64,000 nt of DNA, taken from Hyphomicrobiales bacterium (GTDB lineage: Bacteria; Pseudomonadota; Alphaproteobacteria; Rhizobiales; Rhizobiaceae). The notes under the pieces are model-generated. The model saw only the letters and a list, made by a program, of their open reading frames with translations, did no database searches and had not been told where the DNA came from. A program made the position numbers and the translations under genes. Positions 24,096-49,470 of the stretch are shown here, piece by piece (positions within the stretch are counted from its first letter, which is position 1; the number at the start of each line of letters is the position of its first letter). The stretch is taken from assembly GCA_900473915.1 (NCBI GenBank), contig UCNG01000005.1:62001-126000 (forward strand). The letters are read 5' to 3'.

Positions 24096-25649
24096 TTATA
24101 TCTTGTCGCGAAGCCAGTCGCCCGCGATGCGGATGTCTTCATCTATGAGAGCATGCCCGGCTTCAACCGTGCTTACCGTGAGCGCGGCTCCATCATCTCT
24201 CAGAACTTTTTCCAGCGTTCCACTCCCATCCCCAAAGGGATCGGAAGCGCCATTCGTCAGAAGCACCGAAGCGTCCGACAAATCCGCCCCTTCGGGCTGC
24301 TCTTCGAGAACCTCCTGGCCGCGCAGAAGAACCGCCGTGCGAACCACATGCGGGTGAAGGCGCATGAATGCAGCCAACAGATTAGCGCCGTTGGAGTTAC
24401 CGATAAACGCCGTCCGGCTCAGGTCGATGCCATAAGCGGCGGCGGCGCCCTCGACAAAAGCCTCGAACGCCTGTGCTTCAAAACGGATGTCTGCCTGATC
24501 GAACTTTTTCAGATCGAAGCGGCGAAACCAGCGCTGGATGCCCTCTTCCGTGCTGCGTCCACGCACGCCCAGAAGCGTCGCGCGCGGCGCGGCCTTGCGG
24601 GCGAAAGGCATCAGGTCATTTTCGTTCCCGCCAGTACCGTGCAAGAGCACCAGCGTACTGCCATCCGGATCTTCGGGCTGGTGTATCCGATGAACGAAAG
24701 GCAGGTCGCGATAGATGACACGCTCTTCGCCCGGCAGGGCAAATTGCGGCATCCGCGCCCGGATAGCATCCGCCTTTTCCTCATTGCCCGGCGGCACGAA
24801 CAGAAATTCCCCCAGTATTTCAACAGGCTCGTCTATCGTGAAGCCTGGTGCATCGGTTGCAAATTCGAACAAAGTTCCGGCAGGCTCGCGTACATAGAGC
24901 GACGTGAAATATTTGCGGTCGTGAACATTGACGGCGCTGGAATTCAGCTTCGACAATTCCTTCTCGGCCTTTTCCACGTCACCCATATCGGCGGCACGGA
25001 AAGCCACATGATCGGCAATTCCCGCACCGGGAATGCCCGGCCAGAAACCACCTGCATCGCGCACATCGATGGCATCGCCAGAATCCGAGAGAAGGCGATC
25101 TATCGTGCCTTCTTTGGCCGAAGGCCTGAAACCGAAATAGCGCTCGATGAAACCGGCGGTCTGTTCCGGCGCTTCGGACAGAATGGTCGCGGCACGCAGA
25201 CGCCTGACCGCGAAAGCTGCTGGAATGCCTTCGCTTTCCCACGCATCGTTGGCGGCAAGATCACAGCCGACCAGCTTGACGATCACACCGTCCGGGTCAC
25301 GCAGGCGCAGGACAGGTTCACCGAATTCCTGAACCGGCCCTTCGGACGGCACATGATAGCGCAAGGCACGCTCGAGCCAGAAACCGATGGCGGTGCGATC
25401 AATCGCGAGCGCAATTTCACTGACCTGCCCGTGGCCGACACGCCCCCTGGAGCCGTCCTCCCACACCAGGAACGTTATCAATGATCCGGGTGTGCCCGAA
25501 CGGTCGCCATAGAACAGATGCAGCTGCTCGGCATCTTCAAACCCGCCCGTTTGCTTGACGATACGCAACCCCAGAAAGCCGACATAGAAATCGACGTTCG
25601 CCTGCACTTTTCGGGTGATGAGGGTGATGTGGTGGATGCCGCTTGTCAT
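24096..25649 (-). CDS. Fused VOC dioxygenase and alpha/beta hydrolase
   Basis: 517 aa. Residues 1-310 are a two-repeat VOC ring-cleaving dioxygenase (H7, H214 and E262 are the likely metal ligands; REPAGTLFEFATDAPGFTIDEP closes it). Residues about 315-517 are a phospholipase/carboxylesterase-type hydrolase with LVLLHGTGGNENDL and a complete triad S419 (GNSNGAN), D470 (NGASDP) and H499 (AGHAL). Bacillus has the same two activities as separate genes, mhqO and mhqD. A fused protein could open an aromatic ring and hydrolyse the product in one molecule; that coupling is inference. Confidence 0.85.
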   Translation of the reverse strand: MTSGIHHITLITRKVQANVDFYVGFLGLRIVKQTGGFEDAEQLHLFYGDRSGTPGSLITFLVWEDGSRGRVGHGQVSEIALAIDRTAIGFWLERALRYHVPSEGPVQEFGEPVLRLRDPDGVIVKLVGCDLAANDAWESEGIPAAFAVRRLRAATILSEAPEQTAGFIERYFGFRPSAKEGTIDRLLSDSGDAIDVRDAGGFWPGIPGAGIADHVAFRAADMGDVEKAEKELSKLNSSAVNVHDRKYFTSLYVREPAGTLFEFATDAPGFTIDEPVEILGEFLFVPPGNEEKADAIRARMPQFALPGEERVIYRDLPFVHRIHQPEDPDGSTLVLLHGTGGNENDLMPFARKAAPRATLLGVRGRSTEEGIQRWFRRFDLKKFDQADIRFEAQAFEAFVEGAAAAYGIDLSRTAFIGNSNGANLLAAFMRLHPHVVRTAVLLRGQEVLEEQPEGADLSDASVLLTNGASDPFGDGSGTLEKVLRDDGAALTVSTVEAGHALIDEDIRIAGDWLRDKI

Positions 25650-25778: not shown

Positions 25779-25888
25779 AAAAGAAAAAGGCCGCGCGGGA
25801 GGAGGATGCGCGGCCTGATCTTGAATACGGCTTGGGAGGAGGAGTGCCGTATTCCTTATCGAGTTCTGGGAGGAGGAGTGAACTCGAT
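25779..25888 (-). ncRNA. Triple-hairpin anti-Shine-Dalgarno RNA (cuckoo/CcsR-like)
   Basis: Read on the minus strand there are three perfect hairpins in a row, each with CTCCTCC in its loop. Stems are 25858-25866/25880-25888, 25823-25831/25846-25854 and 25789-25796/25808-25815 (9, 9 and 8 bp). The last is followed by TTTTTCTTTTT, making it an intrinsic terminator. Repeated hairpins exposing CCUCCUCCC are the mark of the alphaproteobacterial cuckoo, CcsR and NfeR1-type small RNAs, which can pair with ribosome sites. It lies 115 bases after the lrgB stop, so it may be cut from the lrgAB mRNA or have its own promoter. Confidence 0.8.
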
Positions 25889-26002
25889 GAACAGATGTTT
25901 ACCCGGCTCCCTCGCCTGCGGCAACGGCCATTAATGCATATCAGTTATGCAAAGACGCTGGCGCTCGCGTTGGAAGCAGACTCATCCTTGAAAATCAGGC
26001 GC

Positions 26003-26698
26003 TTACAGAAAATGGGCAATCAAGGGTGCGGCAAGTACATTCACCAGCCCGACCAGCACCATGACCAGCCCCGCGATCGAACCTTCTTCACTGCCGATCT
26101 GGTGGGCCTTGGCCACGCCAGCGCCGTGTGCGCCCATGCCGAAAAGAGCGCCGCGCGCCAATGTCGAGCGGATCGGCAGCCAGTTGAGCATGACTTCACC
26201 GAGCGCCGCGCCGAATACGCCGGTGAGAACCACAAAGATCGCAGTCAGGTCCGGCGTGCCACCGATGTCGCCCGAGACAGTCATCGCAAAGGGCGTGCTC
26301 ATCGAGCGCGGCATGAGGCTCAGGCTGATTGCCTCGTTCAGTCCCAGCAGATGCGCCAGCCCCCAGGCCGATGCCATGGCAGAGGAACTTCCGACGACCA
26401 CGCCTGCCAGAAGAACCGGCCAATAGCGACGGATCGTGGCGCGCTGCTGGTAAATCGGGATTGCAAAAGCCACTGTTGCAGGCCCAAGAAGCGCGACCAG
26501 CCAATGAGTGGCGCTGAAATAGCCGCGATAATTCTGATTGAGCCCAATGACCAGCGCCATCAGCAGCAAGGGCGTGACGGCAAGCGGTGTCAGCCACCAC
26601 ATGGGAAAGCGGCGATAGACGCGCTTGGCGGCAAGATAAAGCAGGATCGTTGCGGCGGACCAGAAAAGTGTCGCTACTAGCGGATTACTTAGCGACAT
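26003..26698 (-). CDS. lrgB: LrgB/CidB family membrane protein
   Basis: 231 aa with about seven membrane helices. Family marks include LLGPATVAFAIPIYQQ, GVVVGSSSAMASAWGL and LMPRSMSTPFAMTVSGDIGG, the conserved core of LrgB. In Staphylococcus LrgAB affects murein hydrolase activity and cell death; in Gram-negatives roles in pyruvate or metabolite transport are proposed. It overlaps lrgA by 14 bases, so the two are co-translated. Confidence 0.88.
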   Translation of the reverse strand: MSLSNPLVATLFWSAATILLYLAAKRVYRRFPMWWLTPLAVTPLLLMALVIGLNQNYRGYFSATHWLVALLGPATVAFAIPIYQQRATIRRYWPVLLAGVVVGSSSAMASAWGLAHLLGLNEAISLSLMPRSMSTPFAMTVSGDIGGTPDLTAIFVVLTGVFGAALGEVMLNWLPIRSTLARGALFGMGAHGAGVAKAHQIGSEEGSIAGLVMVLVGLVNVLAAPLIAHFL

Positions 26699-27092
26699 AA
26701 CGCAGGCTCCAGCGGTAGCAGAGATCGACCGTCAATGCGGTAACACTCATGACCGTCAATGTGCCCAGCAAGATTACAGCCATGATTTTGAGGCCAAGCA
26801 GTCCAATCAGCTCCTGATGCTCAAGAACTGCGAGCACTGCGGGAACAAAAAAGAGCAGCATTTCAGCCAGAAACCATTCTGCTCCGCGCTTCATGCTGAA
26901 CAGGCTGATACGCCCGCTCAAAAGCAGCGCCAGCACCAGCGCCATACCCACAATGCCGCCCGGAAGAGGCAGGCCGACGAGCCGGACAAACAACTCGCCC
27001 GCCAGCCAGAAGCCGACCAGCGTCGCGATCTGCATCAAGCGGCTGTGATGCAGGGCGTAACGAAACCGGATCAGGAGGCTGTGGGCGTTCAT
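26685..27092 (-). CDS. lrgA: LrgA/CidA family holin-like protein
   Basis: 135 aa from the ATG at 27092; in-frame ATGs at 27119 and 27146 are possible. Four membrane helices, with the family core GELFVRLVGLPLPGGIVGMALVLALLLSG. It is thought to form oligomeric membrane pores together with LrgB. It is divergent from the LysR gene, the usual arrangement for cidR/lrg loci, so control by that regulator is likely. Confidence 0.85.
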   Translation of the reverse strand: MNAHSLLIRFRYALHHSRLMQIATLVGFWLAGELFVRLVGLPLPGGIVGMALVLALLLSGRISLFSMKRGAEWFLAEMLLFFVPAVLAVLEHQELIGLLGLKIMAVILLGTLTVMSVTALTVDLCYRWSLRYVAK

Positions 27093-27158
27093 GGGCTTTT
27101 CCAATAGAGACAGTGGCATTTTCACCAGCGAATATAGGCTCTCCATCGCTATTCTAGA

Positions 27159-28490: not shown

Positions 28491-28637
28491 TCAAGCAAAA
28501 GCAGCTTCGCGGGCAACGCGATGAATGTCGCCGCGTGAAAGTCCGAGATCGGAAAGCTCGCGGTCGGTGCAGCCATTGAGTTCACGCACGTTTTCGCGAT
28601 ATTGCATCCAGCGATGGAAATGGGCACGAAGAGTCAT
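28491..28637 (-). CDS. DUF1127 small protein
   Basis: 48 aa from the ATG at 28637; upstream frame is not conserved-looking. HFHRWMQYRENVRELNGCTDRELSDLGLSRGDIHRVAREAAFA is the DUF1127 pattern (Arg-rich helix, then L..L.D..L.DLGLSR). DUF1127 proteins in Rhizobiales and Rhodobacter affect RNA turnover or phosphate metabolism, and in Rhodobacter one (CcaF1) is linked to the CcsR RNAs. Here the anti-SD RNA at 25779 is 2.7 kb away, so a link is only suggestive. Confidence 0.85.
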   Translation of the reverse strand: MTLRAHFHRWMQYRENVRELNGCTDRELSDLGLSRGDIHRVAREAAFA

Positions 28638-28857
28638 TGCGGTATCCCCTTTTTTATCTTCCTCCCGATAATGAGCTTCGGCCTTTCCCGGTCTTTTGAG
28701 AAGTGCGTTTCCTGCATGGCTGCCGTGACCGTAGCGAAATCCCAGCATTTCCACCGGATTTCCTTTTCCCTTAAGAAATAGCCTCCCAATATCGTAATCA
28801 TTGTGTAATGCTGGTTTAGATATAGCTGCCGTTTCACAACCGGCACCGGTTCGTTCC

Positions 28858-47911: not shown

Positions 47912-48113
47912 CAACCCGATACTCCGTAGCCTAAGCACTGCTTGACAAAGACCATTGACCGGTCGCGGCGTCAATGCCAACCCTTAGAGCAGTTGGAAAC
48001 CGGGTTTTCCGCAGGAATCCGAGTATTTTCATGGTGCCCCGGATGCGCTTTTCCTGAAACGGGACTGTTTCGGCATTGACGGCCTTGCCCAACAGGCATA
48101 ATGAAAAACTGTT

Positions 48114-48169
48114 CCGTGGTGATTTGGCCGGCCGGCTTGCAGCCACGTTAAAGAATTCGCTAAAAAAGG
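48114..48169 (+). ncRNA. SAM-II riboswitch aptamer
   Basis: CGTGG (48115-48119) pairs with CCACG (48143-48147) around TGATTT ... CTTGCAG, followed by an unpaired stretch and GCTAAAAAAGG (48159-48169). These are the invariant parts of the SAM-II (metA-type) H-pseudoknot found upstream of metA, metX or metZ in alphaproteobacteria. SAM binding to it should reduce expression of the next gene, metZ. Confidence 0.9.
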
Positions 48170-48216
48170 CCGCGGTTCGTTACCGGCCTTTTGCGTGTTC
48201 GCAAGGCCGGTTTTTT
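48164..48216 (+). promoter_or_regulatory. Attenuator with competing terminator and antiterminator
   Basis: Terminator: CCGGCCTT (48183-48190) pairs with AAGGCCGG (48203-48210) plus TTTTTT. Alternative stem: AAAAGGCCG (48164-48172) pairs with CGGCCTTTT (48184-48192), sharing the terminator left arm. The alternative starts in the A-tract that the SAM-II fold uses, so SAM binding should favour the terminator. It is a complete transcription-control device before metZ. Confidence 0.75.
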
Positions 48217-48276
48217 ATTGGCCGCCGAGGCATTTCTTCCCGCCCCGGCCGACCAGCTTTTCGACAGGTTGGAAAA

Positions 48277-49470
48277 ATGACGACTGAGAATACCCGCAAA
48301 TTTCGCCCCGCAACCGAACTCGTGCATGCCGGATCGTTGCGCTCCGGATTTGCCGAAATGTCGGAAGCAATGTTTCTGACGCAGGGCTTCCTTTATCCCA
48401 ATGCCGAAGCTGCTGAAGCGCGCTTCAAGGGTGAGGACCCGGGTTTCATCTATTCGCGTTATGCCAACCCGACCACGGACATGTTTGAAAAGCGCATGTG
48501 CGCGCTGGAAGGCGCCGAGGAAGCACGCGCCACCGCATCCGGCATGGCGGCAGTGGCCGCGGCCATTCTGTGCCAGGTGCAGGCCGGCGATCACGTGATT
48601 TCCGCCCGCGCCGTCTTCGGCTCCTGTCGCTATATCGTCGAGACGCTTCTGCCGAAATATGGTGTCGAAATCTCGATCATCGATGGTTCCGACATCGAAA
48701 ACTGGAAAGCGGCGGTTCGCCCGAACACCAAGGTTATGTTCCTTGAAAGCCCCTCCAATCCGACGCTCGAAATCATCGACATCGCTGCCGTTGCGCAGGT
48801 CGCTAATGAAGCGGGCGCCAAGTTGATCGTCGACAATGTTTTCGCAACGCCGCTTTTCCAGAAGCCGCTGGAGCTTGGGGCCCACATCGTCGTTTATTCG
48901 GCGACCAAACACATCGATGGCCAGGGGCGTTGCCTTGGCGGCGTGGTTCTCTCCAACCGCGAATGGATTGAAAATACCCTGCAGGATTATTTCCGTCACA
49001 CGGGTCCGGGCCTCAGCCCCTTCAATGCGTGGATCATGCTGAAGGGCCTTGAAACACTATCCGTGCGCGTGCGCCAGCAAACGCATTCGGCGGCTGCGGT
49101 TGCAGACTTCCTCGCTGGCAAGCCAGGCGTCAAGCGCGTGATTTATCCGGGGCGGGCAGACCATCCACAGGCCGACATTATCGCCAAGCAGATGACCGGT
49201 GGCTCAACCCTCATCGCTCTGGAACTGGAAGGCGGCAAGGAGGCCGCGTTCAAGTTCCAGAACGCCTTGCAGGTCTTCAGCATTTCCAACAATCTGGGTG
49301 ACGCAAAAAGCCTTATTACGCACCCGGCAACCACGACGCACAAGAACCTTACCGACGAGGCCAAGGCCGAACTTGGTATCTCGGACGGCCTGCTTCGCAT
49401 ATCGCTCGGCCTTGAGGATACGGACGATCTCGTGGAAGACGTGGAAGCAGCGTTGAAGGTGGCTCGCTGA
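48277..49470 (+). CDS. metZ: O-succinylhomoserine sulfhydrylase
   Basis: 397 aa from the ATG at 48277; the longer frame would include the riboswitch. Cys/Met metabolism PLP family: SEAMFLTQGFLYPNAEAAEARFKGEDPGFIYSRYANPTTDMFEKRMCALEGAEEARATASGMAA, and the PLP lysine in VVYSATKHIDGQGRCLGG. It makes homocysteine from O-succinylhomoserine and sulfide. The SAM-II element directly upstream confirms its place in methionine supply. Followed by a strong hairpin. Confidence 0.93.
   Translation: MTTENTRKFRPATELVHAGSLRSGFAEMSEAMFLTQGFLYPNAEAAEARFKGEDPGFIYSRYANPTTDMFEKRMCALEGAEEARATASGMAAVAAAILCQVQAGDHVISARAVFGSCRYIVETLLPKYGVEISIIDGSDIENWKAAVRPNTKVMFLESPSNPTLEIIDIAAVAQVANEAGAKLIVDNVFATPLFQKPLELGAHIVVYSATKHIDGQGRCLGGVVLSNREWIENTLQDYFRHTGPGLSPFNAWIMLKGLETLSVRVRQQTHSAAAVADFLAGKPGVKRVIYPGRADHPQADIIAKQMTGGSTLIALELEGGKEAAFKFQNALQVFSISNNLGDAKSLITHPATTTHKNLTDEAKAELGISDGLLRISLGLEDTDDLVEDVEAALKVAR

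What the first reader, a model, noticed from the sequence alone, without database searches (positions are those of the whole stretch)
25779..25888. Hidden triple-hairpin anti-Shine-Dalgarno RNA behind lrgAB
The minus strand after lrgB contains three perfect hairpins in tandem, each exposing CTCCTCC in its loop, and the last one has a T-tail. This is the pattern of cuckoo, CcsR and NfeR1-type RNAs, which can block translation by pairing with ribosome sites. Here it follows an lrgAB operon rather than a DUF1127 gene, which may be a new genomic context.
Basis: partly seen in the sequence, partly recalled or inferred. Interest (0 to 1): 0.8.

Follow-up and report, generated by a model that had tools for sequence, protein, structure and literature searches.

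The report
Cuckoo-family small RNA beside lrgAB
A small RNA with three loops that can block ribosome-binding sites sits beside the lrgAB genes; its RNA family is already known, but its promoter carries a switch-like sequence that it shares with most RNAs of this type in the same bacterial genus.

Summary
About 25889-25780 (-) there are three perfect 9-bp hairpins with CTCCTCC(C) loops and a T tail, matching Rfam RF02344 (ar14: NfeR1/cuckoo sRNAs) at 83.5 bits, cut-off 58.8. The family is known; this is an ordinary member. It follows lrgB in 24 of 49 lrgB loci, all Brucella/Ochrobactrum or unnamed Rhizobiales. Stand-alone ar14 genes are common (23 of 37 copies). It is probably not cut from lrgAB mRNA: a 22-bp block at fixed distance is 95% identical over 25 loci.

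The new part is that block. It matches the published VtlR/LsrB box at about -61 to -49. In 35 genomes of the genus, TGCATANCTGNNNTGC occurs 154 times, its reversed control 14. Of 150 listed sites, 134 lie upstream of ar14 genes, 5 of AbcR genes, 2 of other DUF1127 genes, 9 of none; 183 ar14 matches exist, so cover by the strict pattern is not complete. I infer a VtlR/LsrB-driven regulon of anti-SD sRNAs that repress transport genes. No expression or binding data were available.

The parts
25780..25889 (-). ar14/cuckoo-family sRNA; both ends inferred, about 110 nt
   Evidence: RF02344 at 25783-25892 (-), 83.5 bits; start inferred from operator and promoter spacing
25858..25888 (-). hairpin 1, loop ACTCCTCCTCCCA
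   Evidence: one pair changes on both sides (AU in 9, GC in 5 of 14 distinct sequences)
25823..25854 (-). hairpin 2, loop ACTCCTCCTCCCAA
   Evidence: all cells paired
25788..25816 (-). hairpin 3, loop ATCCTCCTCCC; with the following T tract a likely intrinsic terminator
   Evidence: stem invariant over 25 loci; not reported by the generic terminator scan
25935..25951 (-). operator TGCATAACTGATATGCA, containing the VtlR/LsrB-type box GCATAACTGATAT at 25950-25938
   Evidence: 22-bp block 95% identical over 25 loci, against 49% further upstream and 51% in the promoter spacer
25919..25924 (-). candidate -35 (TTGCCG)
   Evidence: TTG kept in 24 of 25 loci; poor consensus, not found by the sigma-70 scan
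25896..25901 (-). candidate -10 (TAAACA), 17-nt spacer
   Evidence: TA invariant in 25 of 25 loci; poor consensus
26003..26698 (-). lrgB
   Evidence: Pfam LrgB 1.4e-72
26685..27146 (-). lrgA
   Evidence: Pfam LrgA 1.9e-22

Best explanation
A stand-alone trans-acting sRNA of the ar14 (NfeR1/cuckoo) family, transcribed from its own activator-dependent promoter between lrgB and the next gene. A LysR-type activator of the VtlR/LsrB kind binds the operator at about -61 to -49. The roughly 110-nt RNA shows three equivalent CCUCCUCCC loops that pair with GGGAGGAG-like Shine-Dalgarno sites and block translation, above all of solute-binding proteins of transporters. The same operator stands before most ar14 genes of the genus (directly, or upstream of a DUF1127 gene) and before one AbcR paralogue, so this RNA is one output of a shared regulon. 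Shown here: structure, family, conservation, operator, genome-wide operator distribution. Inferred: transcription, the identity of the activator, target repression.
For: RF02344 over its cut-off. Three loops kept in 24 of 24 lrgB-linked relatives; 99.7% of cells paired. Operator block 95% identical over 25 loci; box exact on the RNA's strand in 24 of 25, in the 25th (L006) exact on the other strand; box start 60 or 61 nt before the RNA in all 25. Published box GCAT-N3-TG-N3-T lies at -61 to -49 of S. meliloti PabcR1 (PMC8844928 passages); LsrB activates NfeR1 (PMC10746234, passages and section 5). AbcR check: box at -62 in 3 of 4 orthologues of one paralogue, 0 of 4 of the other, 0 of 1 third copy, in line with VtlR controlling abcR2 but not abcR1 in B. 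abortus (PMC7486931 passages). Close look at 37 ar14 copies of the genus: 34 have the box 51-58 nt upstream (21, either strand) or the strict operator before the DUF1127 gene (13). Genome-wide: 154 sites against 14 reversed control; 141 of 150 listed sites at ar14, AbcR or DUF1127 loci; in the four genomes with complete ar14 lists 19 of 19 (18 ar14, 1 AbcR). Targets in B. tritici: 8 of 14 ORFs behind GGGAGGAG-N4-10-ATG are 7 solute-binding proteins and 1 ABC ATPase, against 1 of 20 behind other SDs (p 0.0012).
Against: No transcript evidence. The sigma-70 scan found no promoter. The strict operator has 134 ar14-linked sites listed for 183 ar14 matches in the genus. Of the 37 copies, 3 have neither form (L079, L094a, L084). 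In a wider family sample (29 copies, one per genome) the box at -90 to -30 is at 3 of 12 non-DUF1127 and 0 of 17 DUF1127 copies, and one of the 12 (L151) looks like a DUF1127 copy missed by my expression. In A. tumefaciens the authors' motif search found only one site beyond the two it was built from, and a VtlR-dependent sRNA there lacks the box; they also found S. meliloti abcR not controlled by LsrB (PMC7486931 passages), against PMC8844928. Covariation is thin: 1 pair changed on both sides, a count that 475 of 500 shuffles also reach. VtlR binding to this operator was not tested; no genome of the window is held, so presence of the regulator there was not checked. The target sample is small and the 20 of 30 control sites of one pattern were picked by hand.
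Confidence: 0.75

Rival explanations
1. A 3'UTR-derived sRNA: cut out of the lrgAB mRNA by RNase, with no promoter of its own.
For: Same strand, about 110 nt after the lrgB stop; the window lacks the intergenic hairpin of most relatives, so read-through is possible. No promoter found by the generic scan.
Against: A 22-bp operator block and -35/-10 positions kept at fixed spacing between lrgB and the RNA; 19 of 24 relatives have an intergenic hairpin by a lax search; other stand-alone copies with the same box are not behind lrgB.
Confidence: 0.12
2. A cis element: terminator or attenuator of lrgAB, or leader of the downstream glyoxalase/hydrolase gene, without trans function.
For: Hairpin 3 plus T tract would end an lrgAB transcript; the gene at 25649-24096 (-) follows.
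Against: Two further hairpins with the same loops are not needed for termination; 35 of 35 genomes of the genus carry 3-8 ar14 copies; NfeR1 acts in trans through these loops (PMC10746234 passages).
Confidence: 0.08
3. A stand-alone ar14 sRNA, but the operator belongs to a regulator other than VtlR/LsrB.
For: The published box is short: 14 matches in this window, 12.07 expected. The S. meliloti NfeR1 box is given as TGCA-N6-GCAT, which this operator does not match (by eye).
Against: Box and position agree with those described for LsrB/VtlR; published VtlR targets are abcR2 and three DUF1127 genes (PMC12595884 passages), the same kinds of loci that carry the operator here.
Confidence: 0.25

Closest known systems
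NfeR1 / Smr14C2 / SmelC397 of Sinorhizobium meliloti (alpha-r14, RF02344)
   Same: three hairpins with CCUCCUCCC loops, about 110-115 nt, LysR-type box upstream
   Different: operator TGCATA-N5-TATGCA rather than TGCA-N6-GCAT; lies behind lrgB; NtrC site not tested
Cuckoo RNAs (RFM SmelA075 and SmelA099)
   Same: three or four hairpins with CCUCCUCCC loops, variable stems, several copies per genome (PMC3927594 passages)
   Different: none found beyond the locus
CcsR1-4 / CIN1 loci of Rhodobacter
   Same: wider cuckoo group; that CcsR loops carry CCUCC is recalled, not from a call
   Different: co-transcribed with a DUF1127 gene from an RpoHI/RpoHII promoter (PMC10253847 passages); here no DUF1127 gene precedes
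AbcR1/AbcR2 (ar15, RF02345)
   Same: anti-SD motifs, transporter targets, the same box before one paralogue
   Different: another family; the window does not match RF02345 at its cut-off

Membership tests
ar14 / NfeR1 / cuckoo (RF02344) | covariance-model score above the curated cut-off | tested here: met
   83.5 against 58.8 bits
ar14 / NfeR1 / cuckoo (RF02344) | three hairpins, each with CCUCCUCCC unpaired in the loop | tested here: met
ar14 / NfeR1 / cuckoo (RF02344) | stems differ between copies while loop motifs stay | tested here: met
   30 copies printed with stems and loops; the simple finder shows only two hairpins in L058 and L059
ar14 / NfeR1 / cuckoo (RF02344) | free transcript that represses mRNAs through the loops | not testable with these tools
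   no expression data
NfeR1-type regulation | LsrB operator upstream of a sigma-70 promoter | tested here: inconclusive
   GCAT-N3-TG-N3-T box exact at about -61 to -49; TGCA-N6-GCAT form not met; core promoter weak
NfeR1-type regulation | NtrC site TGC-N11-GCA at -116 to -101 | not tested
   its authors found it not evident in Brucella promoters (data not shown there)
CcsR / CIN1 | DUF1127 gene directly upstream in one transcript | tested here: not met
   lrgB lies directly upstream; nearest DUF1127 gene found is at 28491-28754 (-), beyond lrgAB and a LysR gene
AbcR (ar15) | match to RF02345 at its cut-off | tested here: not met

The most novel reading that the evidence does not exclude
In the Brucella/Ochrobactrum genus one VtlR/LsrB operator marks most or all anti-Shine-Dalgarno sRNA genes (ar14 loci, stand-alone or DUF1127-headed, plus one AbcR paralogue) and little else, so the VtlR regulon is an anti-SD sRNA regulon. 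The known protein targets of VtlR (DUF1127 genes) would then be the heads of cuckoo operons, and the cuckoo RNAs could account for effects of vtlR loss that the four known targets do not explain.
Probability: 0.55. Interest if true: 0.65.

Novelty: new member of a known kind. Interest (0 to 1): 0.42.

Why it matters
The RNA alone is an ordinary member of a described family. The operator distribution matters more: it would tie a LysR-type regulator needed for host interaction in several Rhizobiales to one coherent set of ribosome-site-blocking RNAs. It offers a reason why combined deletion of its four known targets had no effect on virulence in published work (PMC12595884 passages). It can be tested on existing lsrB/vtlR transcriptomes, whose gene-level counts may have passed over stand-alone cuckoo RNAs (my inference; those data were not examined).

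Tried and rejected
'Box only at stand-alone copies' was an artefact of looking only 30-90 nt upstream: a wider look found the strict operator, inverted, 94-118 nt before the DUF1127 ATG in 13 of 14 DUF1127-linked Brucella copies, and inverted upstream of 4 of 6 DUF1127-linked copies of Mesorhizobium and Paramesorhizobium. The DUF1127 expressions were too strict; their tables are superseded. One weak ar14 hit (L086, 31.6 bits) was dropped; one ar14 match each of G014 and G010 was not fetched. One search did not turn minus-strand loci round and is superseded. One search's finder printed two hairpins for L005; one search shows three. lrgAB as a target: no GGAGGAG seen by eye before lrgA or lrgB. 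Target test: 20 of 22 sites fetched, 6 of these without an ORF of 100 aa dropped; controls: 32 of 42 sites fetched, 22 with such ORFs, 20 scanned, 1 hit (a phosphonate-binding protein). Nine operator sites lie near no ar14, AbcR or DUF1127 locus; four (G040) were not listed. An AbcR neighbourhood of B. tritici was read for a vtlR gene; none was recognised by eye in 9 kb.

Print: no paper held Brucella, lrgB and 'small RNA' together; one held both VtlR and NfeR1, an S. meliloti study; none of the 10 listed of 59 contains lrgB; nothing to the point in the listings. The main cuckoo and alpha-r14 papers are not held, so earlier description cannot be excluded.

Full report
What is there. On the minus strand, about 110 bases after the stop codon of lrgB, lie three perfect 9-bp hairpins whose loops carry CTCCTCC(C), followed by a T tract. 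The region folds far better than shuffles (z -6.58) and matches Rfam RF02344, ar14, at 83.5 bits against a cut-off of 58.8. It is the only ar14 match over the cut-off in the window.

Relatives. A scan for LrgB relatives gave 49 loci. In 24 of them (L001-L021, L024, L026, L042; 21 named Brucella or Ochrobactrum, 3 named only Rhizobiales bacterium) the same RNA follows lrgB. In 24 no such RNA was seen within 1500 bases, among them B. endophytica (L025); in one (L046) the held DNA ends within lrgB. The window belongs to this group: its LrgB is identical to that of B. tritici, and the closest locus, L011, is 89.7% identical over 10,997 aligned bases. The 25 RNAs (window and 24) keep all three loop cores. 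99.7% of cells pair. One pair of hairpin 1 changes on both sides (AU to GC, 5 of 14 distinct sequences), three vary on one side, one departs by an unpaired cell, 22 never vary; shuffles reach one doubly changed pair in 475 of 500, but five such cells in only 1 of 500. So covariation within this group is thin, and the fold rests more on the different stems of the paralogues (30 copies printed).

Own promoter. Between lrgB and the RNA, a 22-bp block (TTTGCATAACTGATATGCATTA in the window) is 95% identical across the 25 loci, against 49% further upstream and 51% in the promoter spacer. Its box starts 60 or 61 nt before the RNA in every locus. The box GCATAACTGATAT matches GCAT-N3-TG-N3-T, proposed for VtlR/LsrB (PMC8844928 and PMC7486931 passages). 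If the RNA starts at 25889, the box is at -61 to -49, the position given for S. meliloti PabcR1. A TTG and a TA core sit at -35/-10 positions with a 17-nt spacer; both hexamers are poor and a generic scan finds no promoter, which fits an activator-dependent start but does not prove it. In 19 of 24 relatives a lax search finds a hairpin between lrgB and this block, not all convincing as terminators; the window, L006, L017, L019, L021 and L026 have none.

A shared operator. Of ar14 copies in the genus, 37 were examined (from 7 genomes and the window; 8 are lrgB-linked, so not all independent). 14 follow a DUF1127 gene, 23 do not. Of the 23, 21 have the box, on either strand, 51-58 nt before the match; of the 14, 0 have it there. 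Background is 354 of 18,441 random 60-nt stretches. 13 of the 14 carry the strict operator, inverted, before the DUF1127 gene. The pattern TGCATANCTGNNNTGC, drawn from the stand-alone copies, was then searched in 35 genomes of the genus: 154 sites, 14 for the reversed control. Of the 150 listed, 125 lie within 700 nt upstream of an ar14 match or 28 (76 of 87; 49 of 63), at two sharp distances: 68 at 39-44 nt and 57 at 242-485 nt, the latter all inverted; those of this second class that I fetched have a DUF1127 gene between. Of the other 25, one is before an AbcR gene; the 24 others were fetched: 9 ar14, 4 AbcR, 2 DUF1127 genes without an ar14 match over the cut-off, 9 none. In the four genomes with complete ar14 lists, 19 of 19 sites are at ar14 (18) or AbcR (1) loci. 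Not every ar14 gene has the strict form: the genus sample holds 183 ar14 matches. Correcting these numbers did not change my odds.

Which regulator. Published work names VtlR as activator of abcR2 and three DUF1127 genes in B. abortus and B. melitensis, abcR1 not being controlled in B. abortus, and LsrB, its S. meliloti counterpart, as activator of NfeR1 (passages). Here one AbcR paralogue has the box (3 of 4 orthologues), the other does not (0 of 4). This makes VtlR/LsrB the likely factor. It remains an inference: binding was not tested, the S. meliloti NfeR1 box is described in another form, in a wider family sample the box is at only 3 of 12 non-DUF1127 copies, and in A. tumefaciens the authors found very few sites.

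Targets. Sites GGGAGGAG-N4-10-ATG, complementary to the loops, number 22 in B. tritici. Twenty were fetched, 14 lead ORFs of at least 100 aa, and 8 of these match solute-binding proteins (7, one of TRAP type) or an ABC ATPase (1). Behind two other SD patterns 1 of 20 scanned ORFs does (Fisher p 0.0012). This agrees with reported NfeR1 and AbcR targets (passages). The sample is small, and any ar14 copy would serve equally. No such SD was seen before lrgA or lrgB, so no link of function to lrgAB is claimed.

Verdict. The member is ordinary; the lrgAB neighbourhood is a conserved location rather than the likely source of the transcript; the point worth following is the shared operator.

Noticed in passing
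window 25951-26003: Distance from lrgB stop to operator is 52 bases in the window, 83-100 in 23 relatives and 28 in L019; the intergenic hairpin is missing here, so lrgAB read-through may be possible in this strain.
   Followed up: partly
window 28491-28754 (-): A DUF1127 gene with no ar14 match behind it and no operator match near it.
   Followed up: partly
window 48106-48185 (+): SAM_alpha riboswitch, 82.9 bits, within the 5' part of ORF 48076-49470 as listed, which reads like a Cys/Met-metabolism PLP enzyme (by eye).
   Followed up: no
L227, L229, L237, L239, L244, L245: A glycine riboswitch lies on the other side of the operator, pointing away from the DUF1127 gene, in 6 of 24 fetched loci.
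   Followed up: no
G001:C4:189199-190031 and similar places in G002, G017, G019, G036, G039: Two ar14 copies in divergent orientation about 570-590 bases apart.
   Followed up: no
G066:C45, G059:C23, G062:C12, G076:C1: Three or more ar14 matches in a row in genomes of the wider family sample.
   Followed up: no
window 24096-25649 (-): One ORF holds a glyoxalase domain and, weakly, a hydrolase domain.
   Followed up: no
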